Of a stretch of DNA of 16,351 bases, positions 1-13,492 are shown in pieces. The stretch comes from Butyriboletus loyo. Lineage: Eukaryota > Basidiomycota > Agaricomycetes > Boletales > Boletaceae. Within the stretch, counting starts at the first letter, position 1. Each line of letters opens with the position of its first letter. The notes under the pieces are model-generated. The model had not been told where the DNA came from. It saw only the letters and a list, made by a program, of their open reading frames with translations, and did not search any database. The stretch lies in assembly GCA_038093515.1 (NCBI GenBank), contig JBBPSI010000391.1, positions 1 through 16,351 on the forward strand, read 5' to 3'. A program made the position numbers and the translations under genes.

Positions 1-418
1 GTGGGAACTTACATGTGATCTCTTGCTGACTAAGCATATGATGTCATGGCCTAGACCAGGCCTAGACTCTATGACGTCACAACACATGTATTTAATCTCC
101 GTTTACTTCCCTTCTTTATGATCCCCGCGCCTCGTGTGGTTAATCACTGCTGCGCTTCTCTTCTTTAGTCTAGCCATGTATAGTAATTCCTCACACACAC
201 AGCATGGTCTGTGCGCATCTCTGTACAATATAAAGGGCTTGTGGTTAGACTAGGATTCCCTAGTTTTAACCACTTGTCTATTCGCTGGCAACAGTTGAGG
301 GCTAAGCTAAGACTCCTAGTTCATACTTGCCAGGTACTTGTGTATACCTGCAACTGTAGTGGACCGCTTGTGGCATTGTATTCGTACTGGCATTCGACTG
401 TGTGTTGCTATCGTTACA
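1..418 (+). repeat. Family B LTR, left end outside the window
   Basis: This stretch aligns with the complete family B LTR at 1168-1687, starting at about its position 100, so the window opens inside the LTR. Shared landmarks are a CRE-like TGACGTCA (72-79), the box GGTCTGTGCGCA (206-217) and a TATA box (229-235), all reading rightward. The right edge is CGTTACA at 418. Directly after it the E protease sequence begins on the other strand, so the LTR sits inside the pol gene of E. It may be a solo LTR or the 3' LTR of an element lying to the left. The expected 5-bp target copy would be CATGT (419-423), but its partner is outside the window. It differs from the second B LTR by many substitutions and small indels near the 3' end, so the two are separate, older insertions. 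Confidence 0.85.
72..235 (+). promoter_or_regulatory. Family B LTR promoter elements (left copy)
   Basis: Three elements lie in order: TGACGTCA (72-79, the palindromic ATF/CREB-type site), GGTCTGTGCGCA (206-217) and TATAAAG (229-235). Transcription would start about 30 bases after the TATA box and read rightward, antisense to the E protease. The roles are inferred from sequence and from the same order in the second B LTR. Confidence 0.5.
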
Positions 419-842
419 CATGTCGAGGTACCGGATGAGGTACTGTTGTGTAATTGCCCATGGGTCGTCAGGGCGTCTCTCTGTGGGTTGTTCTGGAAAT
501 ACGACTCTTCCAGTCGTCCAGTCAATGTCGGGGTTGGCGTCGCGAAGCCAGGGCAGTCCGAGGATAACGTTTTCTTGTCTGACATTGAGGATCAAGAACT
601 CTCGGAGTTGTTCCGTTCCTCCTGTCTGGAGGATCATTGTTGTCGAATACCGTATGGTTCCTCCTTTATTCCTGGAACCGTCGACGTTCTGAGCTACTAG
701 CTCCTTGTTTAAACGTTTGATGGGGAGGTTGTTCCACTTGACAAAATCCCTGTGGACAAAACATCCTGATGCTCCGCTGTCTACCAACGCGGTAGTGTCG
801 AATACTGGCCTGTTCTTGATGGCACATAGCACAACCGGGATG
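419..842 (-). pseudogene. Element E: pol protease region (fragment)
   Basis: Read leftward from 842, this encodes a Ty3/gypsy retropepsin. LVDSGASG carries the catalytic Asp, GLPWL is the C-terminal flap-region motif, and IDW follows as in family A. The fragment aligns with the family A protease from the AQS-x-x-IPV segment to the RYLVRYLD segment, at roughly half identity by eye, so it is a different family of the same clade. The frame is open throughout. It is cut on its 3' side by the family B LTR at 418/419, so the RT, RNase H and integrase of E lie to the left of the window. On its 5' side it is cut by A1 at 842/843. When A1 and one target copy are removed, the frame continues from the gag-like ORF at 8460 without a shift. 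It is inactive because the gene is split twice. Confidence 0.85.
838..842. repeat. A1 target site duplication, left copy
   Basis: GGATG precedes the 5' LTR of A1 and GGATA (8460-8464) follows the 3' LTR: four of five bases match. The assignment is supported because removing the element plus one copy restores the reading frame of E. Confidence 0.75.
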
Positions 843-848
843 TGTTAC

Positions 849-938
849 GGTAGTGGTATACTTTTTCCATCCACTACCACTTGGACTACTTCATTCGCCT
901 AGCCTTTCGCTAGTGCCCTTTGAGCGGTACGAACCGCT
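849..938 (+). other. Two inverted repeats in A1 U3
   Basis: The first is GGTAGTGG (849-856) facing CCACTACC (871-878). The second is AGCGGT (923-928), loop ACGA, ACCGCT (933-938). Both recur in the 3' LTR. In A2 the second becomes AACGGT/ACCGTT, a compensated pair change. U3 is transcribed as the 3' end of the element RNA, so either an RNA hairpin or a DNA palindrome is possible. Confidence 0.6.
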
Positions 939-1051
939 TTAGCTTAGTCATCATTTCTCGCGCACGGACACACTTTCTTTCGTACTCCAGAACTCTCTGG
1001 AATATTCCTTCCCCATTTGTAGTTTCCTTCTCGCGACTCGATTAGGAACTT

Positions 1052-1117
1052 GGTCTGTGCGCAGACCCCCAGTAGTATAAAGACTCGGTCTTTACACCCT
1101 GTACTGTATCTAGTTCT
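1052..1117 (+). promoter_or_regulatory. A1 5' LTR promoter, start site and self-primer
   Basis: The inverted repeat GGTCTGTGCGCAGACC (1052-1067) is followed by TATAAAG (1076-1082). The segment ATCTAGTTCT (1108-1117) starts 32 bases after the TATA box, the usual distance to a start site, and is the exact reverse complement of the primer binding site at 1796-1805. It is therefore the predicted 5' end of the RNA, which would fold back and prime minus-strand synthesis as in Tf1. Confidence 0.7.
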
Positions 1118-1162
1118 ACGCAGCCTACTGCTAGCAATTAGTATCACTTCCAGACTCTTAGT

Positions 1163-1167
1163 GTGCG
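1163..1167. repeat. Target site duplication of the inserted B LTR
   Basis: GTGCG at 1163-1167 is repeated exactly at 1688-1692, flanking the B LTR. The uninterrupted 3' LTR of A1 has a single copy at the matching place (8354-8358). Confidence 0.93.
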
Positions 1168-1687
1168 TGTTATAATCATAACATTTTATTTGTACACTTC
1201 GTACACTTTCAATTCGGACTTAGTCGTTTTCACTTTCAAAGGTCACGTGACATAGCGCACGTGATCGTGGGAACTTACATGTGATCTCTTGCTGACTAAG
1301 CATATGATGTCATGGCCTAGACCAGGCCTAGACTCTATGACGTCACGACACATGTATTTAATCTCCGTTTACTTCTCTTCTTTTTGATCCCCGCGCCTCG
1401 TGTGGTTAATCACCGTTGCGCTTCTCTTCTTTAGTCTATCCATGTATAGTAATTCCTCACACGCACAGCATGGTCTGTGCGCATCCTTGTACAATATAAA
1501 AGGGCTCGTGGTTAGACTAGGATTCCCTAGTTTTAACCACTTGTCTATTCGCTGGCAACAGTTGAAGATTAAGTTGAAACTCCTTGATTCCATCTTGCCA
1601 GGTCTTTGTGTAGACCTGCAACTGTAGTGGGACCTCGTGTGAAAGGGTACTACGTGCTAGCATTCGACTGCGCGTTGCCTCGCAACA
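1168..1687 (+). repeat. Solo LTR of family B inside the A1 5' LTR
   Basis: This is a 520-bp LTR with TGTT...AACA ends and an exact 5-bp target duplication on both sides. No internal sequence is present, so it is a solo LTR, probably left by recombination between the two LTRs of a full element. It begins with an inverted repeat, TGTTAT-AATC-ATAACA (1168-1183). It holds two CACGTG E-boxes (1244-1249 and 1258-1263), a CRE-like TGACGTCA (1338-1345), GGTCTGTGCGCA (1472-1483) and TATAAAAG (1495-1502). It lies downstream of the A1 start site and upstream of the A1 primer binding site, in the same orientation as A1. Confidence 0.93.
1242..1502 (+). promoter_or_regulatory. Family B LTR promoter elements (inserted copy)
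   Basis: GTCACGTGAC (1242-1251) and a second CACGTG (1258-1263) are E-boxes of the type bound by bHLH factors. TGACGTCA (1338-1345) is an ATF/CREB-type site. GGTCTGTGCGCA (1472-1483) and TATAAAAG (1495-1502) form the core promoter. The likely start is near 1525-1530, just before an inverted repeat ACTAGG-ATTC-CCTAGT. Transcription from here would run into A1 gag. Function is inferred from motifs only. Confidence 0.5.
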
Positions 1688-1795
1688 GTGCGCACTAAGA
1701 CATAGTCTGAGACTCACCCAGAATCGTCTCTCGAGTCTCGAGGCCACTCCAGAGTGCCTCCTCGCTGTTCAATTGTTAGCGCCCAGCATAACAAA

Positions 1796-1805
1796 AGAAC
1801 TAGAT
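1796..1805 (+). other. A1 primer binding site (self-priming type)
   Basis: AGAACTAGAT begins two bases after the LTR. It is perfectly complementary to ATCTAGTTCT at the predicted RNA 5' end (1108-1117, and 8299-8308 in the 3' LTR). I see no match to the 3' end of initiator tRNA-Met. The same arrangement occurs in A2 and, with compensating changes, in element E. Confidence 0.75.
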
Positions 1806-2184
1806 CTTCCTCTCGCTTCTGCTTCCCAGCAGTAAAGCCGCCCTCCCCTCGCCCACCATTTCCATCCAACGTCCCAGACGCGTCGGTCGTTCTTTCCGTG
1901 TTCCCTCTCCCGAACCGGAACCCATCGTCGTCGACAACCCATCGCCGCCACACTCTCCCGCCCTGCCAGACCCTCAACCCCAGTTTTCCCCTCTGCCCCA
2001 GTCGGACCCCGAACCCTCTTATCAACCCGAGGACCAGGGTCTAGGGCAGGAAGACGAACCGGAACCCAGCGACGACGGTTATCACAGCGACTGGCTTGAC
2101 AGAACCCCCCACGTATCTCGCTCTCCCTCTCCACCGTATTTCCCACCCGCAGATCCCTCTGACGACGAGAAGGACGACGACGAT
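1804..2184 (+). other. AUG-less open frame joined in frame to gag (A1)
   Basis: The gag frame stays open upstream of its AUG back to a TAG at 1801-1803 inside the primer binding site, about 127 codons. Read this way it gives a proline- and acid-rich segment (for example PSPEPEPIVVDNP) running into DDDD just before the gag Met. Compared with A2, most substitutions fall in third codon positions and the one indel is 12 bases, which is the pattern of coding sequence. No ATG occurs in any frame between the start site and the gag ATG in the uninterrupted leader of A2. The best non-AUG candidate is ATT at 1858, in the strong context CCCACCATTTCC. Alternatives are an untranslated leader or an unseen splice. 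Confidence 0.6.
1813..1843 (+). other. Leader box conserved between families A and E
   Basis: This 31-base segment right after the primer binding site recurs at 12116-12146 (A2) and, on the minus strand, at 10200-10170 (E). The core CAGTAAAGCCGCCC is identical in all three. It could be a packaging or primer-fold element. It also resembles a 3' splice site (pyrimidine run before CAG). Confidence 0.5.
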
Positions 2185-3159
2185 ATGTCTGATAAAAAGA
2201 ATATCGTTCCCAAGGACTTCACCGGTCTTAACGAAGACGCTTCGCGATGGCTCCTCGCCATGCACACCTACTTTGCCACTAATCAAACGGCATTCCCCGA
2301 CGACGAATCCAAAATCAATGCCCTCCTCATGAAGATGAGCGAAGGAAAAGGAAAGACATTCTCCGAAGGATGGATGAGCCTCCTTCTAGATGGACATCCC
2401 ACGGCGCGACAAAGAGAGTTCACAATGGTCTGCGAGGACTTCAACAGAGTCTTCCATCCCTTTGACGTAGGTGAAAGCGCCAGAATTGATCTGGGGAACC
2501 TCACCCAGAACAAAGCCAACCAAAAGGATGGCTACGACACCTACGTCACAGAATTCCAGCTCCTCGCTGCCAAGTCCGGAATCATCGATGAAAAGGCTCT
2601 CATCGAGTGGTTCATCCACGGTCTTGACCCCCGCCTCACAGAATCTGTCCTCTCTTGCGAGAAACCCCCTACCACGCTTGCCGGATGGGCTGAGAAAACA
2701 TCCGCCTTCCATGCACAGCACAAACGCATCAATGACCTCCGCGCCGGGAAAAGATACATCCCCACGTTCTCCTCCTCTTCCAAACCCTCATCCAACCAAA
2801 GGGACCCCAACGCTATGGACGTCGACGCCGTCCGACTTACTCCCATGCAACGCGCGGAGTACATGAAACAGAACAAATGTTTCATATGCCACCAAGTCGG
2901 ATGCCGCTCTACCAACCATCCCCGCCCCCCTCGCAACGGGCAGAACTCCCGAGGACCGCCCTCTCGCCCCCCTCGCAACCCTCAGCGCACACGCGCCGCC
3001 GTCGTCACGCAACCCGAACCAAAGCCCTCCCCGCTCGCCGACTATTTGTCCGAGTTAAAAGGTCGAGGCACTCAACAAGAAGATGTCTTGAGCGTTCTCA
3101 AAGCATGCTTCAACGATGATGAAGAAAGGCTGCCTGTCGCAGCAACTAAGGATTTTTAG
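2185..3159 (+). CDS. gag: A1 Gag (capsid/nucleocapsid) polyprotein
   Basis: This encodes the structural protein that forms the virus-like particle. From the ATG it gives 324 residues. Residues ~15-185 have the helical retrotransposon-gag layout (W-rich helices, FHPFDVGES, DGYDTYVTEFQ, LIEWFIHGLDPRL). A serine/arginine-rich linker follows, then the zinc knuckle CFICHQVGCRSTNH (~232-245), and a basic, proline-rich stretch. The knuckle ligands run C-x2-C-x4-C-x4-H, not the usual C-x2-C-x4-H-x4-C. The ATG is the first in the leader, but the frame is open upstream and may be used. The frame ends at TAG 3157-3159, inside the slip site for pol. Compared with A2 it lacks 21 bases near the 3' end, in frame, between AAG repeats. 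No other damage is visible. Confidence 0.93.
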   Translation: MSDKKNIVPKDFTGLNEDASRWLLAMHTYFATNQTAFPDDESKINALLMKMSEGKGKTFSEGWMSLLLDGHPTARQREFTMVCEDFNRVFHPFDVGESARIDLGNLTQNKANQKDGYDTYVTEFQLLAAKSGIIDEKALIEWFIHGLDPRLTESVLSCEKPPTTLAGWAEKTSAFHAQHKRINDLRAGKRYIPTFSSSSKPSSNQRDPNAMDVDAVRLTPMQRAEYMKQNKCFICHQVGCRSTNHPRPPRNGQNSRGPPSRPPRNPQRTRAAVVTQPEPKPSPLADYLSELKGRGTQQEDVLSVLKACFNDDEERLPVAATKDF

Positions 3160-3191: not shown

Positions 3192-4937
3192 CATACTCTC
3201 GCCCCTGTAGTTTTGTCAAATCCCAATGCGCAATCAATTCGAATTCCTGTGTCTTTATTCGCGCATGAAGAAGGTCAAATCGTCGACACATTCGCCCTGG
3301 TGGACAGTGGCGCAAGCGGATGCTTCATAGACCGAGATCTAGTGAAGCGAAAGAAATTGCCGATGGAACGGCTACCCAAGCCACTAAGTGCCCAAAACGT
3401 GGACGGGTCAAACAACCAAGGAGGAGTAATACGACACAAGGTCACCGTCTCCATCAGAATTGGAGAAACCGAGGAGGAACGGAGTTTCCTAGTCCTCAAC
3501 ATAGGAAAAGAAAACATGATCCTGGGACTACCGTGGTTACGAGAAGCCAACCCGGTAATAGATTGGGCCACCGGCCATATCGATCTCCCAGATCAAATCA
3601 AGAAGCCCCGACACGACTCCCCTCGGGCAATCGCTCAAAGGTACCTGGTACGGTACCTTGACTTGGACCCAGACTCCAAGATCGCCAAGCTCTGGAAGAA
3701 GCGAGTAGACGCTTCAGCAAGGGAAGCTTACCCTGTTCGAAAAGCAACCATCGCGACTGAGATCGCCGCCCAAGTCGTCAAGGAGAAAGCAGTTCTCCCT
3801 ACCCCGTTCGCCGCCTTTGCGGACGTTTTTGACAAAAAGAACACCGAGGAACTACCCCCGTCCCGATCTTTCGACCACGCTATCGACCTCGACAAAGACT
3901 TTGTCCCGAAAGTCGCCAAGGTCTACCCCCTGAACCCGAAAGAATCGGAAGCCTGCAAGGCTTTTGTCGAGGAACACCTCAAGTCAGGAAAGATCACTCC
4001 CTCGAAGTCTCCTCAGGCCGCCCCCTTCTTCTTCGTATCGAAGAAAGACGGCTCACTACGCCCTTGCCAAGACTACAGGTATCTGAATTCCCATACGGTC
4101 AAAAACGCCTATCCCCTCCCTCTCATCTCCGACCTCGTCGATCGCCTCAAGGGATCAAAAATCTTCACCAAGATGGACATCCGTTGGGGATACAACAACG
4201 TCCTCATCAAGCCGAACGACCGTTGGAAGGCGGCCTTCATCACCCCTCAAGGGCTGTTTGAGCCCACTGTGATGTTCTTTGGACTGTGCAACTCTCCCGC
4301 CACGTTCCAAGCGTTGATGGACCACATCTTCGGTGATCTCATGGCAGAAGGCTGGCTAATCATTTACATGGACGACCTTCTTATCCATTCTGCCACGTCT
4401 GCGGAGCACGAGGCCCGCACGATCCGCGTCCTGGAGAGACTCAGGGAACACAAACTCTTCCTCAAACTCGAAAAGTGTTCGTTCGACGCCGAGGAAGTCG
4501 AGTACCTCGGGATGATGGTCCGAGAAGGGCAGGTCAAGATGGACCCCACCAAGTTAAAGGCCATTCGCGAATGGAACCCCCCGACCTTAGTGAAGGCAGT
4601 CAGATCCTTCATTGGGTTCTGCAATTTCTATAGGAGATTTATTCAGGACTTCTCCCACATTGCTAAACCCCTTCACGATCTGACCAAAAAGAACTCCCCC
4701 TGGGCCTGGACCCCGGCTTGCGAACAGGCGTTCCAAGCAATCAAGCAGTCGTTCCTACGACAACCTGTTCTCTCAATGCCCAATGTCACGAAGCCGTTTG
4801 CTGTGATGACGGATGCTTCCCTCACTGCTACTGGAGCAGTGCTCATGCAGAAGGATGTCAACGGTGATTTGCATCCTTGCGCCTACTTGTCTAAAACGCT
4901 CTCACCGGCAGAGCGTAACTATGATATCTATGATCGC

Positions 4938-4988
4938 AAGTTGCTCGCTGTCATCCATGCATTGGAAGAATGGCGCCACTACCTATGA
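4938..4988 (+). other. Two inactivating changes in A1 RNase H
   Basis: Codon 4938-4940 is AAG (Lys) where A2 (DRELLAV) has the conserved acidic residue of Ty3/gypsy RNase H. Codon 4986-4988 is TGA where A2 has CGC (Arg) in WRHYLRG. The frame continues normally after the TGA. Confidence 0.9.
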
Positions 4989-5722
4989 GGTACTGGTCAT
5001 CAAGTAGAGATTCTCACTGACCACAAGAATCTCACGTATTTCCGCCAACCAAACAAGTTGTCCCGCCGGCAGGCACGCTGGCTCATGTTCCTACAGGATT
5101 TCGACCTGCATTTTCACCACGTTCCCGGAACCCAGATGGGCCCTGCAGACGCCCTATTCCGACAAGATGACGTTGACACTTCCGCCGACAACCAGGAAGT
5201 GACCCTCCTCCCAGAAAATCTCTTCGCTCGGAAGATTGACGTCGCCCTCACAGAAAAGGTTGCCGCCTCCACCCCCAGCGACCCCATGATTAAGAGGTGC
5301 ATGCAGGCCCTCTACGAAGACTCGCCCCTCTTCCCCAAGATGAATGCTGGCGATTGGGACTTTGACGGCAAGGAATTATATTTCCACAAGAAACGATATA
5401 TCCCCGAGGCCGCATGTGTCGACCTCATCCGATCCCTGCATGAAAGCCACGCTGGGGGTCACGGTGGAATCTTCCGCACCCAGAATCTGGTACAGCGGGA
5501 TTACTGGTGGCCGGGCATGGCTAATTTGGTCCGACACTTCATCTCTGGCTGCGCCGTATGTCAGGTGCATAAAGTTAATACTCACCCCACCATGCCTCCG
5601 CTCACCCTGCTGGCCAGCATGGCCTCTCGCCCCTTTGAACAGGTCTCAGTTGACCTCATCACCGGCCTTCCTCCCTCTTTAGGATATGATTCTGTCATGG
5701 TCGTGGTAGACCATGGGCTTAC

Positions 5723-5734
5723 GAAGGGGGTAAT
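5723..5734 (+). other. Possible central polypurine tract (A1)
   Basis: GAAGGGGGTAAT inside the integrase core is a 12-base exact copy of the sequence at 8023-8034, the polypurine tract plus the first base of the 3' LTR. The CCATGGG upstream is also shared. The same 12 bases lie at 16056-16067 in A2, within about 73 bases identical between the copies. A second plus-strand primer in this place is known from Ty1 and lentiviruses. The protein motif DHGLTKGV could also explain the conservation. Confidence 0.5.
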
Positions 5735-6710
5735 TTATTCCCCTTGCAACAAGGACATCGACGCGGCTGGAGTCACCAAATTATTTTTCAAAACTGTTTT
5801 CCTTCGGTTCGGCCTACACTCCCGCTGCATCTCGGACAGAGGCCCTCAATTCACATCCGCCTTCGCTAGAGAACTCGCAAGGCTCTTGGACTACGACCTT
5901 GCCCTCTCCTCCGCATACCACCCGCAGACTGACAGAGAAACCGAACGAGTCAATCAAGAATTGGAAACCTACCTACGGATCTTCTGTGATGGCCATCCAG
6001 AACGGTGGGCCGAACTCCTTCCTATGGCCGAATTCTCCCACAACTCCATGACTCACTCGTCGACAAATGTGACTCCCTTCTCCCTGATGGTCGGGTATGA
6101 ACTGAGGTCTTATCCTCCAATCGGAAAGACTTTCCTCCCCGCCCTCGAGTCCAGACTCTTGGAGCTCACGGAAGCCCGAACGGAAGCATTAGAAGCCCAT
6201 GAGAAGGCGCGGCATCTGATGAAGGAATGGATCTCGTCCATGTTCCGCCCATGGAAGACTGGCGACAAAGTTTGGCTTGAAGGGCGCAACCTTCGACTTA
6301 GGTACCCGTCCAAGAAGCTCACCCCAAGGTGGGAAGGACCATTCGAAATCGCACAGGTTGTCTCCCCTGTGGCGTATAGACTCCGACTACCGCCGACCTG
6401 GAAGATCCATGATGTCTTCCACGCGTCCCTCCTGACCCCTTATCGTGAAACAGCGGAACATGGTCCGAATTTCACAAACCCTCCTCCGGAAGAAATAGAC
6501 GGAGATGAAGAGTACGAGATCGATCGGATCCTGTCCCATCGCAGCTCGAAGGGATGCCGTCAGTTCCTTGTGTCCTGGAAGGGGTATTCCGCAGCGGAGA
6601 ACACCTGGGAACCAAACGGGAACTTGGTCCATGCGCAGGCCTTGCTCAAGGCTTATAAACTGCGCCACCCGAAGGACTTTCCCTCTCCATCTTTGCAGTA
6701 ACACTCGAAA

Positions 6711-7982
6711 ATGTCCATCTCCCCAGTCGAAAACAACGCCTCTTCTGCTGCCGACAACAACAATGAGAATCTCCCTCTTCTGCTGCAACCCCCCGTCCGC
6801 TCGTCGCGCCTCCCAGTATCCTCCCGCCGCATACTGTACGCTGCTGTTCTAGAAAACCCTGTCGCCACCTACGCCTTGGAGCAGCATATGGACTTTACCG
6901 GAGACTATGTCCTCCACACACTCGCTTCCCTCTACCGCTCCTACGCCCTCGCCCGCACCATCCACACCCGTCTGTGTCCGGACAACCAGCCGCCCGTCTA
7001 TGCCACCGCCCTTGAGTCCTCCTTGATGGAGGCTAGGGGCTACACCCTCGACATCCTCCACGCCAAAGGATTCGGTTACGTGGTTGATCAACTCCTGCCA
7101 GGTATTCTGGCCCCCGTCCTTAGACCCATCCTCATCGCGCTTGCTCCTAGGGAGCGGCAGTTCTACCTCCATTCCGCCGACCGCATCGGCTACCTCCGTC
7201 CCATGGCTCGCGGCCCCAATCCAGTGCCTCGTCCTCCCCTGGCAAGATCTCCTTCGCCTGTACCTATTCCAGCGCCATCCGCTCGAGAGTCACCTGCAAC
7301 CACGCTGGTAGCAGACTCCTCTCACGAAACAACTGGAGAGTCCCTGGAGTCCTTTCGGACCGACGTCGACAAGCCCCAGGTCGCTCGTCGACACTCCCCC
7401 TTACCGCCTCGTACAGTGCGTCGCCAACCTTGCCAACCATTACTCCAGGCCGGAGCTATCCCAGGGTCAGTCACCCTTACCGCCGCAGGACGCAGAATCG
7501 CCAACCGAGCCATCCGCTCCGTCACCCCCCAACCGTCTACTCGACGAGGAACCCCCTCGATCCAACTCATTCCCTGCGCCACTACCCCTGCCGCCGCAGC
7601 TGGTAGCTCTAATGACTCTTCCTACGGACCCCCGCCCCCCTACCTCGCTGGTCGGGGCACTCGTGATTCCCCTATCGTCGTCGATGATAGATCCCCTGGT
7701 CCCAGCCCGGGCCTTACTCGACCTCGCCTCATCCGCCCGCAACTCTGCTTCGAGTGCGGGACCGTCGGCCACTTCCGCAGGGAATGTCCCAACTATACCT
7801 GCCCGTTTTGCCGCCGCATCGCCCCTGGTCATATACAGGAGTTTTGCCCAGAACGTGTCTGCGGTTTATGCGGCGCCGTTGGCCACATCGTCGCCAACTG
7901 CACGTTCCGAGACGACGCATGGGCGGAGTTACCTGCCGACGATCCTTACGACTATGACTTCAACGAGGGAGCATCTCAATGA
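6711..7982 (+). CDS. A1 third ORF: zinc-knuckle protein downstream of pol
   Basis: This 423-residue ORF starts with ATG nine bases after the pol stop, in the same frame as pol, and ends 51 bases before the 3' LTR, so it belongs to the element. Residues ~36-165 look helical and partly hydrophobic (for example ALEQHMDFTGDYVLHTLASL). Residues ~170-340 are proline/serine/arginine-rich and probably disordered. Three zinc knuckles follow: CFECGTVGHFRREC (346-359), CPFCRRIAPGHIQEFC (364-379, C-x2-C-x6-H-x4-C) and CGLCGAVGHIVANC (384-397). The tail is acidic. The layout, helical part then linker then knuckles, is like a second Gag. No signal peptide and no convincing membrane helix are present, so it is not an env. 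It may bind element RNA or DNA, or supply nucleocapsid function beside the odd knuckle in Gag. Expression could be by reinitiation, stop readthrough or a separate RNA. I do not recognise a named family. Confidence 0.88.
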   Translation: MSISPVENNASSAADNNNENLPLLLQPPVRSSRLPVSSRRILYAAVLENPVATYALEQHMDFTGDYVLHTLASLYRSYALARTIHTRLCPDNQPPVYATALESSLMEARGYTLDILHAKGFGYVVDQLLPGILAPVLRPILIALAPRERQFYLHSADRIGYLRPMARGPNPVPRPPLARSPSPVPIPAPSARESPATTLVADSSHETTGESLESFRTDVDKPQVARRHSPLPPRTVRRQPCQPLLQAGAIPGSVTLTAAGRRIANRAIRSVTPQPSTRRGTPSIQLIPCATTPAAAAGSSNDSSYGPPPPYLAGRGTRDSPIVVDDRSPGPSPGLTRPRLIRPQLCFECGTVGHFRRECPNYTCPFCRRIAPGHIQEFCPERVCGLCGAVGHIVANCTFRDDAWAELPADDPYDYDFNEGASQ

Positions 7983-8020: not shown

Positions 8021-8033
8021 GGGAAGGGGGTAA
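8021..8033 (+). other. A1 3' polypurine tract
   Basis: GGGAAGGGGG (8021-8030) plus TAA lies directly before the 3' LTR, the expected place for the plus-strand primer. Confidence 0.85.
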
Positions 8034-8459
8034 TGTTACGGTAGTGGTATACTTTTTCCATCCACTACCACTTGGACTACTTCATTCGCCTAGCCTTTCG
8101 CTAGTGCCCTTTGAGCGGTACGAACCGCTTTAGCTTAGTCATCATTTCTCGCGCACGGACGCGCTTTCTTTCGTACTCCAGAACTCTCTGGAATATTCCT
8201 TCCCCATTTGTAGTTTCCTTCTCGCGACTCGATTAGGAACTTGGTCTGTGCGCAGACCCCCAGTAGTATAAAGACCCGGTCTTTACACCCTGTACTGTAT
8301 CTAGTTCTACGCAGCCTACTGCTAGCAATTAGTATCACTTCCAGACTCTTAGTGTGCGCACTAAGACATAGTCTGAGACTCACCCAGAATCGTCTCTCGA
8401 GTCTCGAGGCCACTCCAGAGTGCCTCCTCGCTGTTCAATTGTTAGCGCCCAGCGTAACA
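8034..8459 (+). repeat. A1 3' LTR
   Basis: This 426-bp LTR is bounded by TGTTACGG and GCGTAACA. It holds the same elements as the 5' copy: U3 hairpins (second one 8114-8129), GGTCTGTGCGCAGACC (8243-8258), TATAAAG (8267-8273) and the self-primer ATCTAGTTCT (8299-8308), which begins 32 bases after the TATA box. It is followed by the target copy GGATA (8460-8464). Confidence 0.95.
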
Positions 8460-10122
8460 GGATATGCATAGACTGGGCCTTCTGTCCAGTTGAATATGTG
8501 AAGGCGGCAATTGTCTTGGGGTGCCGCTCAACCTCGGGGGAGGGGAAACTCGGTTGGTCTCCCATGGCGGGGATCTTGCTCATCCGCTCTGCTGATAGTT
8601 CGTCATCTGCTCCTCTCTTGACTGCTGTTGTCCCAGGAGCATCGTAGAAACGTTCTATAGGGGTTTCTGCCCTAATGGGAGGAATCAGGGGTAGATCATC
8701 ATTGTCTTCCTCGGTGGCGATGAGATTTGGCACGTCCTCGTGCATGGGTCCTGGGGTCTCCAGGGGGGTGGCGTAGGAGGTCTCCTTGGCAGTCTCGTTG
8801 CTACTGCTGGGCTCCCGTCGTCTTTTCTTGTGCTCTTGCGCATCTTCTTCTTCTCGGATCCTTTTTCCGAGGATTTCTTGTGCTACTGCAGCGGCTTGGT
8901 AGGCTTTCCTTAAGTCTGCTGGAGAGGTCGCTTGTTTTGACCTTTTTAATGTTGGCCTAATTTCGATGGCCGGTTCCTTTTCATCTTGGCCTCCGGACTT
9001 CTTTCTCCAGAGGGCGATCAACTCTTTGGTTGTCATTGTTGCTTCTTTTAATTCTGCCCCAGGGGTCATCTCCTCCTTGGGTTCGGCAGTAGTCTCTTTT
9101 GTTGCTTGTGCGGGTACTGGCGTCGGCACAGGCTTCCTTGGTGCGAGCGCGGGTTTCCTCACGAGAGGGCATCGGTGTACGAACGGCTTGCTCCATTGTA
9201 CAAGTGTAAACCCCTCGGAGTCCACTACTGGCTCGGGTTTACTTGTGCTCGACCCAGATATCGGCGATCAGGGTGAGATTCTGTCGATGAGAGGGCGTGG
9301 GGCGATACATTCTGCCAGCGTCTTGGCAGCGGGTTCCTCTTTCTTCTTGCCAAAGGCCTTCTCGAGGCATTGGCGAATTGTATCCTTGCTGATACCTCTC
9401 GACTCCAGGGTCTGGAGGAGTTCCTTAACCGAGGGCTCCGACGTGGAGGCGGCTCGGACTTGTGACGGTGGTGGTGTCGGGGAAGAGGCTTGTCTGGCGT
9501 TCCCAATGTTCCAGGCTCTCGCAAGAGGTGGTGGAAGACTTTTCTGTGGGGTGGAGGTTACGCGAACCTGTACTGGTGGGGACGAAGCGCGTCTGGCTTT
9601 CCCGATCTCCCGTGCCTTGTCGAGGGGGGAGAGTTTCCTTGTGGCGGTGGTGGTGGCGCGTATCTGTGCGGGGGAGGAAGAGGCACGCATGGCTCTCCCT
9701 ATGGCTCTTGCCTTTTCAATAGGGGAGCCAGTTCGGCGGGCTGCTCCCAGGGAGAGGGCTTTCTGAAGTGGGGTCTGTCGGGTGGCGGGGAGGGAGACTG
9801 CGCGTAAGTGCGCGACGGGGGAAGAGGCACGCATGGCTCTTCCGAGGGCTTTCGCTTTCTGTAGCGGGGAACGGCGGGTGACGAGAGTGAAGGGTACTTC
9901 TGCCGCGGCAGGATGACGGTGGAAGGGGTTTCGGCAATCTGCTCGCAAGCAGGTAGAGGTAGGGGCGGCGGGGGCTAAGGTGACTTTGTTGATGACGACG
10001 TCTTCCATTGGGTGTACATGGAAGGGATTGTTGCAGTGGGGACGTTGGCAGGTCCACTGGACACGTTGTCCAAACTCCTCGGTCTTCTCAGCGAGAAGGG
10101 CGTATCGGTTACTGAAGGACAT
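8460..10122 (-). pseudogene. Element E: gag-like ORF fused in frame to protease
   Basis: Read leftward from ATG 10122-10120 (context GCCATGTCC). It begins MSFSNRYALLAEK. Residues 25-37 and 58-70 are two copies of C-x4-C-x4-H-x-H (CQRPHCNNPFHVH and CLRADCRNPFHRH), possible zinc sites. Residues ~84-215 hold five imperfect basic repeats of the type PL-x-KA-x-x-IG-x-A-x-RASSP. A short helical segment (KELLQTLESRG) follows, then TGA at 9270-9268. After it the same frame continues for ~270 codons: a basic KKRRR stretch, acid- and proline-rich sequence, then AQSMHI, which lines up with AQSIRI before the family A protease. I see no capsid domain like that of family A. The TGA may be a mutated CGA (CpG) or a natural readthrough stop. 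The gene is cut at 8460 by A1. Its role as Gag is inferred from position only. Confidence 0.75.
9478..9873 (-). repeat. Internal peptide repeats in the E gag-like ORF
   Basis: Five imperfect units of roughly 25-30 codons share a KA-x-x-(I/L)G-x-A-x-RA-S-S-P core: KAKALGRAMRASSP, KALSLGAARRTGSP, KARAIGRAMRASSSP, KAREIGKARRASSP and RAWNIGNARQASSP. They are strongly basic, suggesting nucleic-acid binding. Confidence 0.8.
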
Positions 10123-10169
10123 GGCGATCTCGGGGCGACTTCGCAAAGTTGGAGATGGCGGCGGGCTGG

Positions 10170-10216
10170 GGGCGGCTTTACTGTTGGAGAACAGAAGCGA
10201 GTAGAGAGCTAATTCT
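10170..10216 (-). other. Element E primer binding site and conserved leader box
   Basis: On the minus strand, AGAATTAGCT (10216-10207) begins two bases after the LTR and is complementary to AGCTAATTCT at the predicted RNA 5' end (10454-10445). The following 31 bases (10200-10170) match the leader box of family A. The frame is open from here to the ATG at 10122. Confidence 0.7.
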
Positions 10217-10218
10217 TT

Positions 10219-10792
10219 TGTTACGCTGATAGCGCACAATAGCTAGCAAGCAAGCACTTATAGGGGCTCGAGCCTAATGAGGAAACTAGCCGACTCGCGT
10301 AGACGACGCTATCGGGTGTCTTGCAAAGCAAGTGTCGGCGAGATCTTGAGTGGTGGCGACCAGACGAGATCGAGCAGACTCTTATCGGCTTTATCGGCAA
10401 GAGAAGGGTATATTGCTAGATTACTATGCACTTGGTAGATGCGTAGAATTAGCTAAAGAGTCTGTACTTCTCTAAGTACTCGTATATATACTACTGGGTA
10501 TCGTGCACAGACCGAGCTGTGCGTGGCAGCGAAGGGCGGAGGGTTATGAGTCTACTCGAGTCATAACGGCGAATGGAGAAGCAGCAAAGTGCCGGTAACG
10601 AGGGAGCTAAGCTCCGAGTAAGAAGGCGACATCGTCAACGAATGAGAAGAGCTGAAGGTGAAGTGACGATGTCCATGAGGCGAGCCCCACAGGGTGAAGG
10701 GTGCGCGAATGGCGGAGCCCTTGGATATGGGTCTCGACGCGAAGGTACTGACGCGTTGTAATCTAGTCACGTGCTAGTCACCTGATGTAACA
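10219..10792 (-). repeat. Element E 5' LTR
   Basis: This 574-bp segment is bounded by perfect inverted TGTTAC...GTAACA and lies directly before the primer binding site of E, so it is the 5' LTR of the minus-strand element. It contains a minus-strand promoter, an E-box CACGTG (10768-10773) and the self-primer. Its partner LTR and left target copy lie outside the window; the candidate right target copy is AAATG (10793-10797). Confidence 0.8.
10445..10513 (-). promoter_or_regulatory. Element E promoter and self-primer
   Basis: Reading leftward: GGTCTGTGCAC (10513-10503), a TATATATA box (10490-10483), and AGCTAATTCT (10454-10445), which begins about 32-36 bases after the TATA box. The order and spacing match family A, and the box before TATA is almost the same. 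Confidence 0.65.
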
Positions 10793-11040: not shown

Positions 11041-11669
11041 GCTCTAGCTGCCTTAGAAGATTGGGAAATCGAGGCTCTAGACGTCAAGACTGCATTTCTC
11101 TTCGGAGATCTTGATGAAGAAATCTATATGGAACAACCTGAGGGGTTCGCTCAAAAAGGCTCAGAAAGTAAAGTCTGTCGCCTACGGAAAGCTATCTATG
11201 ACCTCAAGCAAGTGGCCCTTCAATGGAACAAAGCCTTGCATTTATCACTTATCAAACAAGGTTTCAAGTGTACCTTGTCTGACCCGGGAACTTATATAAA
11301 ATTCATCAGGAAAGTCATCATTATTTTAGTTATATATGTTGATGATGCTCTTTTTATGGGTAGTGATAAAGCACAAGTCCTCGCTCACAAGAAACACTTT
11401 ATGAAGACTTGGGAGAGTCAAGACCTTGGAGAAGCAAAAGAGTATTTAGGCATGCAGATTACCAGGGATCGAAGAAATCGTACCCTGAGGCTGGATCAAT
11501 GCGATTATGCACAGAAGGTCATAAAACGATTCAAGCTTGAAAATGCAAAACCCGCACACACACCTCTTCCTTCTGGTTATAATCCTTCACCATCAACCAC
11601 CGAAGCATCGCCATCTTTGCATTCACAATATCAATCTGTCATCGGATCCCTCCTATTCATCATGCTTGG
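11041..11669 (+). pseudogene. Element D: Ty1/copia reverse transcriptase fragment
   Basis: One open frame runs through the whole segment and matches the copia-type RT domain: EALDVKTAFLFGDLDEEIYM, EQPEGF, AIYDLKQ, the active site YVDD (in VIYVDDALFMG), YLGMQI, and the C-terminal SVIGSLLFIMLG. The 5' side starts in the middle of the domain, right after remnant C. The 3' side is cut within the Gly codon of IMLG by the LTR of A2. No protease, integrase or RNase H of this element is in the window. AT-rich codons differ from the GC-rich family A genes, suggesting a separate history. Confidence 0.92.
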
Positions 11670-12096
11670 TGTTACGGTAGTACTCTACTTTTTCTCTCCA
11701 CTACCGTTAGGACTCTTACATTCGCCTAGCCTCTTGCTAGTTCCAGTTGAACGGTAACAACCGTTCTTAGCTTAGTCATCACTTCCCGCGCACGGACGCA
11801 CTTTCTTTCATACTCCAGAACGTTCTAGAGTATCTTTTCCTCGTTTGTACTTTTGCTCTCGCGACCCGATTAGGGAGCATGGTCTGTGCGCAGACCTCAG
11901 TAGTATAAAGCCACTGTCTTTACACCCTGTAACGGTATCTAGTTCTACGCAGCCTACTGCTAGCAATTAGTATCATTCCAGACTCTTAGTGTGCGCACTA
12001 AGACATAGTCTGAGACTCACTCAGAATCGTCTCCCGAGTCTCGAGGCCACTCCAGAGTGCCTCCTCGCTGTTCAATTGTTAGCGCCCAGCGTAACA
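11670..12096 (+). repeat. A2 5' LTR
   Basis: This 427-bp LTR is bounded by TGTTACGG and GCGTAACA. Contents: inverted repeat GGTAGT (11676-11681)/ACTACC (11700-11705); hairpin AACGGT-AACA-ACCGTT (11750-11765); GGTCTGTGCGCAGACC (11881-11896); TATAAAG (11904-11910); self-primer ATCTAGTTCT (11937-11946), 33 bases from the TATA start. From the start site to the gag ATG there is no ATG. Confidence 0.95.
11881..11946 (+). promoter_or_regulatory. A2 promoter, start site and self-primer
   Basis: The conserved box, TATA and ATCTAGTTCT keep the order and spacing seen in A1. Here the promoter and the primer binding site are not separated by an insertion. Confidence 0.7.
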
Positions 12097-12496: not shown

Positions 12497-13492
12497 ATGT
12501 CCGACAAAGGAAAGATCGTCCCCAAGGACTTCTCCGGGCTCAATGAAGACGCATCGCGATGGCTTCTCGCCATGCGCACCTACTTCGCCGCCAACCAGAC
12601 GGCATTCCCCGACGATGAATCAAAAATCAACGCCCTCCTCATGAAAATGAGCGAAGGAAAGGGCAAGACGTTCTCCGAAGGCTGGATGAGCCTTCTCCTA
12701 GATGGACACCCTACAGCACAACAAAGGGAGTTCACCACCGTCTGCGAAGACTTTCACAGAGTCTTCCATCCCTTCGACGTAGGAGAAAGCGCTCGCATCG
12801 ACCTAGGGAACTTAAACCAGAACAGAGCCAACAAGAAAGACGGCTACGACACATACGTCACGGAGTTCCAGCTCCTCGCCGCCAAGTCAGGAATCATAGA
12901 TGAGAAGGCGCTCATCGAGTGGTTCATCCGCGGTCTCGACCCCCGCCTCGCCGAGTCTGTCCTCTCTTGCGAGAAACCCCCTACCACGCTTGCCGGATGG
13001 GCCGAGAAAACATCCGCATTCCATGCGCAGCACAAGCGCATTGACGACCTCCGCGCCGGGAAGCGCTACATTCCCACATTCTCCTCTTCCTCGAAACCCT
13101 CGTCCAACAGAAGGGACCCCAATGCCATGGACGTCGACGCCGTCCGACTTACTCCCGTGCAACGCGCGGAGTACATGAAACAGAACAAATGTTTCATATG
13201 CCACCAAGTCGGATGCCGCTCCACCAACCATCCTCGCCCCCCACGCAACGGACAGAGCTCCAGAGGACCGCCCTCTCGCCCCCCTCGCAACCCTCAGCGC
13301 ACGCGCGCCGCCGTCGTCACGCAACCAGAAACCAAGCCCTCCCCACTCGTCGACTACTTGTCCGAGTTGAAAGGTCGAGGCACCCAACAAGAAGATGTCC
13401 TGAACGTGCTCAAGGCATGCTTCAATGAAGACGAAGAAAAGCTGCCCGTCGCAGCAACCAAGGTGGCCGAAGAATGGCCAAAGGATTTTTAG
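12497..13492 (+). CDS. gag: A2 Gag polyprotein
   Basis: From the first ATG of the leader (context AAGATGTCC) it gives 331 residues, colinear with A1 Gag. The capsid-type region covers ~15-185, and the zinc knuckle CFICHQVGCRSTNH with C-x2-C-x4-C-x4-H ligands is at ~232-245. A basic proline-rich tail follows. Near the C-terminus it has seven residues (VAEEWPK) that A1 lost. It stops at TAG 13490-13492 inside the slip site. No lesion is visible, and differences from A1 are mostly silent or conservative, as expected for a gene kept under selection until recently. The protein forms the particle shell and packages the RNA. Confidence 0.94.
   Translation: MSDKGKIVPKDFSGLNEDASRWLLAMRTYFAANQTAFPDDESKINALLMKMSEGKGKTFSEGWMSLLLDGHPTAQQREFTTVCEDFHRVFHPFDVGESARIDLGNLNQNRANKKDGYDTYVTEFQLLAAKSGIIDEKALIEWFIRGLDPRLAESVLSCEKPPTTLAGWAEKTSAFHAQHKRIDDLRAGKRYIPTFSSSSKPSSNRRDPNAMDVDAVRLTPVQRAEYMKQNKCFICHQVGCRSTNHPRPPRNGQSSRGPPSRPPRNPQRTRAAVVTQPETKPSPLVDYLSELKGRGTQQEDVLNVLKACFNEDEEKLPVAATKVAEEWPKDF

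What the first reader, a model, noticed from the sequence alone, without database searches (positions are those of the whole stretch)
6711..7982. Third ORF after pol encodes a Gag-like protein with three zinc knuckles
The place between pol and the 3' LTR is usually empty or holds env. Here a complete 423-codon ORF has a helical N-terminal part, a disordered linker, three C-terminal zinc knuckles (one with a longer C-x2-C-x6-H-x4-C spacing) and an acidic tail. Gag itself has a knuckle with swapped ligands, so this protein may share or replace nucleocapsid function, act in targeting, or counter host silencing. I know of no standard fungal Ty3 element with this gene.
Basis: partly seen in the sequence, partly recalled or inferred. 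Interest (0 to 1): 0.85.

Follow-up and report, generated by a model that had tools for sequence, protein, structure and literature searches.

The report
Conserved third gene in fungal retrotransposon
A jumping gene in what appears to be a fungal genome carries, besides its usual two genes, a conserved third gene for a protein that probably binds RNA or DNA through three zinc-holding loops and almost completely lacks the amino acid lysine; its role is not known.

Summary
ORF3 (6711-7982) is a complete 423-codon gene between a chromodomain pol and the 3' LTR, and not a freak of copy A1. Two capped searches of the host genome give 145 distinct ORF3 loci; 86 of 99 scored matches have no internal stop. 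37 unique intact copies show purifying selection (median dN/dS 0.10; helical domain 0.03; knuckles 0.055; linkers 0.24-0.38). Sixteen metagenome relatives were found; the fullest, 36% identical, keeps three knuckles including the unusual CX2CX6HX4C one. A sister family with 70-72% identical integrase has no ORF3 in the two copies read. "Gag-like" is supported only as architecture: no Gag, capsid or solved fold was recognised. New here: 33 of 37 intact copies have no lysine against about 44 arginines, and no column has majority lysine; A-poor DNA explains part of this. Best reading: an accessory nucleic-acid-binding protein with its own AUG 6-11 nt after the pol stop, acting in trans on element RNA/cDNA. 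A ubiquitin-resistant host-pathway adaptor is the bolder reading. No expression or functional data.

The parts
843..1167 (+). 5' LTR, first piece (LTR interrupted by a nested insertion at about 1168-1687)
   Evidence: blastn of the 3' LTR, 99.1%
1688..1793 (+). 5' LTR, second piece
   Evidence: blastn 99.1%
1794..1809 (+). putative primer-binding site AAAGAACTAGATCTTC; its AGAACTAGAT is complementary to ATCTAGTTCT within the LTR (self-priming of Tf1 type, inferred)
   Evidence: leader alignment of 11 copies; complementarity read by eye
2185..3159 (+). gag, with a CX2CX4CX4H knuckle
   Evidence: Retrotrans_gag E 1.1e-6; alignment of 9 Gags
3213..4988 (+). pol, first open part (protease, RT, RNase H); ends at a stop of this copy
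5058..6701 (+). pol, second open part (integrase, SH3, chromodomain); stop TAA 6699-6701
6513..6659 (+). chromodomain
   Evidence: PF00385 E 4.6e-14, residues 486-534 of the second open part
6711..7982 (+). ORF3, 423 aa
6816..7184 (+). ORF3 helical domain, residues 36-158
   Evidence: AF2 pLDDT 73.6 for residues 31-159; dN/dS 0.03 for residues 36-165
6990..7001 (+). PPVY motif, residues 94-97 (PPxY in 37 of 37 intact copies)
7632..7643 (+). PPPY motif in the linker, residues 308-311 (36 of 37 intact copies)
7746..7787 (+). zinc knuckle 1, CX2CX4HX4C
7800..7847 (+). zinc knuckle 2, CX2CX6HX4C
7860..7901 (+). zinc knuckle 3, CX2CX4HX4C
7911..7979 (+). acidic tail, residues 401-423, net charge -8
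8021..8030 (+). polypurine tract
   Evidence: read directly
8034..8459 (+). 3' LTR, 426 bp, TGTTACG...CGTAACA

Best explanation
ORF3 is a bona fide accessory gene of a chromodomain-type, probably self-primed Ty3 family. It is translated from its own AUG, which lies 6-11 nt after the pol stop in favourable context, most simply by ribosomes that terminate on pol and re-initiate (inferred). The product has an alpha-helical N-terminal domain (predicted), arginine-bearing linkers that look disordered, three zinc knuckles and an acidic tail. It most likely self-associates through the helical domain and binds the element's RNA or cDNA through the knuckles, helping packaging, annealing or protection in trans beside a Gag whose single knuckle is atypical. 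Its near exclusion of lysine would keep it from being ubiquitinated (inferred). Shown here: gene, conservation, selection, architecture, scarcity of lysine. Inferred: expression, nucleic-acid binding, partner and step of the life cycle.
For: 145 distinct ORF3 loci and 86 of 99 scored matches without stops. LTR-gag-pol-ORF3-LTR order recurs in the longer stretches. dN/dS 0.10 overall, 0.03 helical, 0.055 knuckles, against gag 0.053 and integrase-chromodomain 0.018. Three knuckles in 36 of 37 intact copies and in P0002, 36% identical. The knuckles match AIR2 and a retroviral NC weakly by sequence (E 4.4e-4 and 0.0099). The gap between pol stop and ATG is 6-11 nt in 54 of 54 junction entries; among the 30 copies L001-L030 ORF3 is in pol's frame in 16 and out of it in 14, so it needs its own start. 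The base at -3 is A in 52 and G in 2 of the 54.
Against: No expression, binding or localisation data. Sister family B does without ORF3. The helical domain has no recognised fold, so self-association is a guess. ORF3 as a whole is only weakly basic (net +6), unlike a typical nucleocapsid. ORF3 evolves faster than gag and pol as a whole (0.138 pooled in 11 copies against 0.060 and 0.021-0.028). ORF3 and integrase distances correlate only weakly across 27 copies (Mantel r 0.33, 3 of 2000 permutations as high).
Confidence: 0.42

Rival explanations
1. Host-pathway antagonist or adaptor: a protein almost free of lysine, with PPxY motifs, that recruits a NEDD4/Rsp5-type ubiquitin ligase, or blocks silencing, while escaping ubiquitination itself; the knuckles tie it to element nucleic acid.
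For: 33 of 37 intact copies have zero lysine; K/(K+R) in the Gag and Pol of copy A2 is 0.51. Each of the four columns with a lysine in any intact copy is Glu in the other copies. P0002 has 0 lysine, 32 arginines; 10 of 16 relatives have none (P0007 counted for its ORF3 part). PPxY site 1 in 37 of 37 and site 2 in 36 of 37 intact copies; site 1 in 7 of the 9 relatives in which the site was found. Long lysine deserts are enriched among ubiquitin-pathway proteins; 7 of 14 such S. cerevisiae proteins are in that pathway (PMC10169902, passages).
Against: ORF3 DNA is A-poor (17%), so composition explains part: position-specific composition of the window copy predicts 4.8 lysines, and out-of-frame AAA/AAG triplets average 3.7 and 4.5 per copy. 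PPxY is short, site 1 sits just before a predicted helix, P0002 and P0007 lack it, and site 2 was not seen in the relatives' sequences. The binding of WW domains by PPxY is recalled knowledge, not tested.
Confidence: 0.2
2. Second nucleocapsid or Gag duplicate: ORF3 derives from gag and takes over NC function from an atypical Gag knuckle.
For: Helical domain, linker and C-terminal knuckles resemble Gag layout; Gag's own knuckle has swapped ligands in 9 of 9 aligned copies.
Against: No detectable similarity to this Gag or to Pfam gag families. The ligands of the Gag knuckle are invariant, so it does not look like decaying. No capsid appeared among the weak fold matches.
Confidence: 0.15
3. Nuclear import or integration-targeting factor acting with the chromodomain integrase.
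For: In the longer stretches near-full ORF3 matches follow a pol match on the same strand; 93 of 150 listed chromodomain hits have a listed ORF3 next downstream.
Against: Chromodomain families without ORF3 exist in the same genome: family B, read directly in two copies; 57 of the 150 have no listed ORF3, though that list is incomplete.
Confidence: 0.12
4. Env-like protein.
For: Position between pol and 3' LTR. One 19-residue stretch (residues 128-146) reaches a mean hydropathy of 1.82, above the usual rule-of-thumb of 1.6 for membrane segments (recalled). A CAG, as at splice acceptors, precedes the pol stop in 53 of 54 junction entries.
Against: That stretch lies inside the predicted helical domain; in P0002 the maximum is 1.52 and lies elsewhere. 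No conserved GTRNGY donor (in at least 8 of 10 copies) in the 1,400 nt after the 5' LTR. No Pfam envelope match.
Confidence: 0.04
5. Passenger: captured host gene fragment or chance ORF under no selection.
For: Sister family B lacks it.
Against: dN/dS 0.10 with domain-specific constraint, 145 loci, and distant relatives with the same layout, one of which (P0007) joins chromodomain and ORF3.
Confidence: 0.03

Closest known systems
[quoted passage not shown] PMC5408684, passages)
   Same: Extra gene between pol and 3' LTR, kept in many copies, role largely unknown
   Different: Those in the passages read are env-like, antisense, GDSL esterase or DEDDy exonuclease and others; none in those passages is a three-knuckle protein almost free of lysine
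Fungal Gypsy elements with 'add. ORF' (PMC2864245, section 5 read)
   Same: Fungal Ty3/Gypsy, additional ORF of unknown function drawn in Fig. 3
   Different: The section read gives no sequence or domain for it; the figure is not held, so identity cannot be judged
Tf1/Tf2-type chromodomain Ty3 elements
   Same: SH3_Tf2-1 and chromodomain at the pol end; LTR-complementary primer site suggests self-priming (by eye)
   Different: Separate gag and pol frames plus ORF3; Tf1 as recalled has a single ORF
Multi-knuckle RNA-binding proteins (AIR2, retroviral NC)
   Same: CCHC knuckles; AIR2 E 4.4e-4
   Different: Extended CX2CX6HX4C middle knuckle, a helical domain of its own, almost no lysine

Membership tests
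Ty3/Gypsy chromodomain retrotransposon (the carrier) | protease-RT-RNase H-integrase-chromodomain order between LTRs | tested here: met
zf-CCHC zinc knuckle proteins | match to PF00098 above its cut-off | tested here: met
   31.6 bits against cut-off 20.8; zinc binding itself not tested
Gag / capsid | sequence or profile similarity of the N-terminal domain to a gag or capsid family | tested here: inconclusive
   none found, but the profiles are shallow (Neff about 1.4)
Gag / capsid | capsid fold | tested here: inconclusive
Env | transmembrane segment | tested here: inconclusive
   hydropathy only: maximum 1.82 over 19 residues, inside the predicted helical domain; 1.52 in P0002
Env | spliced subgenomic mRNA | not testable with these tools
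   no RNA data; no conserved donor-like site in 10 copies, CAG before the pol stop in 53 of 54
Lysine-desert proteins | long conserved stretch without lysine | tested here: met
   33 of 37 intact copies without lysine over their whole length; P0002 without lysine over 350 residues

The most novel reading that the evidence does not exclude
ORF3 founds a family of lysine-free, zinc-knuckle retrotransposon proteins that are shielded from ubiquitin and use PPxY motifs to steer a host ubiquitin ligase for the element's benefit, the fungal analogue of a retroviral accessory gene.
Probability: 0.13. Interest if true: 0.85.

Novelty: new variant of a known kind. Interest (0 to 1): 0.57.

Why it matters
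Extra genes in LTR retrotransposons are mostly of unknown role. Here one is held by strong selection across at least 145 loci and has distant relatives, while a sister family in the same genome lacks it, which gives a natural with/without comparison. The near exclusion of lysine points to a concrete, testable interplay with host ubiquitin or other lysine modification, and raises the possibility that fungal retrotransposons, like retroviruses, carry accessory genes aimed at the host.

Tried and rejected
Readthrough of the pol stop: rejected as the general route, because ORF3 is out of pol's frame in 14 of the 30 copies L001-L030. P0007, one metagenome protein, does join chromodomain and ORF3 in one frame; a single case, possibly mutated. 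Splicing onto the CAG before the pol stop: CAG stands in 53 of 54 junction entries, but the last 7 codons rank only 22nd lowest of 194 windows for third-base variation, and no conserved donor-like site was found: left open, unlikely. PPxY and a PIVVDD motif that resembles a SUMO-binding motif (recalled) were counted, not tested. A weak match to acetyl-CoA synthase over the knuckles (Pfam E 0.004, NCBIfam E 0.019) is below the curated cut-offs and taken as shared cysteine spacing. The first fold job (two sequences) was poor, pLDDT 34.6. Fold searches gave nothing usable; this does not show a new fold. A viral-contig scan gave no relative; the genome-contig scan was not used. Papers: ten searches (listings seen), and passages of PMC3248453, PMC3411680 and PMC4122921 and of PMC9289625, PMC10665810, PMC2774666, PMC11963269; none of what I saw describes this ORF, but subscription journals, figures and supplements are not held.

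Full report
What is there. Element A1 has LTRs of 426 bp (TGTTACG...CGTAACA), a gag gene, a pol gene ending in integrase, a Tf2-1-type SH3 domain and a chromodomain, then ORF3, a polypurine tract and the 3' LTR. Its two LTRs differ at 4 of 426 aligned positions. ORF3 starts at an ATG 9 nt after the pol stop and ends in TGA at 7982.

It is a gene of the family. A protein search of the own genome scored 99 of 404 candidates; all 99 scored match at 82-100% identity, and 86 of 99 have no stop inside (frameshifts are not counted there, and only the best candidates are scored, so this leans to good copies). With a second search (143 matches scored of 288 candidates) the union is 145 distinct loci, a lower bound. 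In 20 longer stretches (L031-L050) the order LTR-gag-pol-ORF3-LTR recurs; some are truncated, nested or cut by contig ends. Of 54 ORF3 entries read behind a pol end (three loci appear twice), 43 are open over at least 412 codons and 11 are shorter, broken or cut.

Selection. On 37 unique intact copies (665 pairs with dS above 0.02) median dN/dS is 0.10: N tail 0.05, helical domain 0.03, first linker 0.38, middle part 0.08, second linker 0.24, knuckles 0.055, acidic tail 0.11. For comparison gag gives 0.053 (9 copies), protease-RT-RNase H 0.023 (12) and integrase-chromodomain 0.018 (34); ORF3 in an 11-copy subset gives 0.128. The helical and knuckle parts of ORF3 are thus about as constrained as gag; the linkers are much freer, and ORF3 as a whole is the least constrained of the genes.

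Relatives and absence. The first homology search found one relative; profile searches found 9 and then 16 in all, unnamed JGI metagenome proteins, most of them fragments. P0002 (350 aa, 36% identical) has the same layout with CX2CX4HX4C, CX2CX6HX4C, CX2CX4HX4C; P0010 also shows all three (by eye). The linker motifs SLESFRT and LTAAG are shared with the relatives that cover them, with single changes in some. P0007 joins a chromodomain to ORF3, and the end of P0013 can be read as a polypurine tract plus a TGTTAC LTR start in another frame (my inference), so the relative seems to sit in the same place in its element. In contrast sister family B (integrase part 70-72% identical) has pol stop TAG, then 42 nt with a polypurine tract, then its LTR, and no ORF3 (two copies read). 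Of 150 listed chromodomain hits 93 have a listed ORF3 within 420 nt downstream and 57 do not; both lists are capped, so 93 is a lower bound.

How it is expressed. The gap between pol stop and ATG is 6 to 11 nt in 54 of 54 junction entries (9 nt in 28); among L001-L030 ORF3 is in pol's frame in 16 and out of frame in 14. Readthrough therefore cannot be the rule. The base at -3 is A in 52 and G in 2 of 54. The pol ATG likewise overlaps the gag end (AATGGCCAAAGGATTTTTAG or close to it) in 8 of 9 junctions printed, so re-initiation after a stop may serve both joints; this is inference. A splice acceptor-like CAG before the pol stop is kept in 53 of 54, but no conserved donor-like site was found in the 1,400 nt after the 5' LTR (10 copies).

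Lysine. The window copy has 2 lysines and 41 arginines. Over the 37 intact copies lysine counts are 0 in 33, 1 in 3 and 2 in 1; arginine median 44; no alignment column has majority lysine, and the four columns with any lysine are Glu in the other copies. Of 16 relatives 10 have no lysine in the part considered; most lysines of the others sit where further relatives have Glu (by eye). Gag and Pol of copy A2 have K/(K+R) of 0.51; at that rate 0 of 44 would have a chance of 3e-14. This overstates the case, because ORF3 is A-poor: position-specific composition of the window copy predicts 4.8 lysines, and out-of-frame AAA/AAG triplets average 3.7 and 4.5 per copy against 0.14 in frame, while Glu stands at 18 in frame. 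With an expectation of 4.8 to 7 the chance of none is 0.008 to 0.0009 in one lineage (the figure 7 is my scaling from gag and pol). The relative P0002 (0 lysine, 32 arginines) adds to it, though it is not fully independent, and its DNA was not at hand. A 2023 study finds conserved lysine deserts enriched in ubiquitin-pathway proteins and mentions lysine-poor viral proteins (PMC10169902, passages read).

Structure. AlphaFold2 on residues 31-159 with ten sequences gives six helices, pLDDT 73.6, pTM 0.62 for the best model; the other four models have 68.8 to 46.4. No usable match in PDB or BFVD. No similarity to this element's Gag by profile comparison.

Verdict. Calling it Gag-like goes beyond the evidence. 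I favour a trans-acting nucleic-acid-binding accessory protein; the scarcity of lysine and the PPxY motifs make a host-ubiquitin link the most interesting alternative. Additional ORFs in LTR elements are a known kind, so I file this as a new variant.

Noticed in passing
window 1794-1809 and LTR 8034-8459: The sequence after the 5' LTR is complementary to ATCTAGTTCT inside the LTR, suggesting Tf1-type self-priming (by eye).
   Followed up: partly
window 13474-13492; A1 about 3110-3159 and 4986-4988: The pol ATG lies inside the end of gag in 8 of 9 junctions printed; A1 lacks that stretch, and its pol frame has a stop at 4986-4988 that copy A2 does not have.
   Followed up: partly
Gag residues 232-245, window 13190-13231: Ligand-swapped CX2CX4CX4H knuckle, ligands invariant in 9 of 9 aligned Gags.
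   Followed up: yes
ORF3 residues about 156-185, 206-240, 311-345; pol codons -335 to -316 and -75 to -11 from the stop: Local dips of synonymous variation across copies: RNA element, gene conversion or recombination.
   Followed up: no
ORF3 copies: Of 19 internal stops in 13 copies, 17 are TGA (counted by eye), as CGA to TGA deamination would give.
   Followed up: no
ORF3 versus integrase in 27 copies: Distances correlate weakly (Mantel r 0.33), hinting at recombination between copies.
   Followed up: no
window 9268-10239, minus strand: 323-codon ORF with two C-x4-C-x4-H-x-H repeats (CQRPHCNNPFHVH, CLRADCRNPFHRH, by eye); no Pfam match below E 0.1.
   Followed up: no
window 1168-1687, 1-317, 302-832 (-), 11128-11757: Nested insertion in A1's 5' LTR sharing repeats with 1-317; protease-like fragment of another family and copia-like RT fragment (by eye).
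   Followed up: no
L035:1-1430, L036:1-1700; chromodomain hits: Sister family B lacks ORF3; several chromodomain frames without listed ORF3 are open over 1619-1755 aa, suggesting a fused gag-pol.
   Followed up: partly
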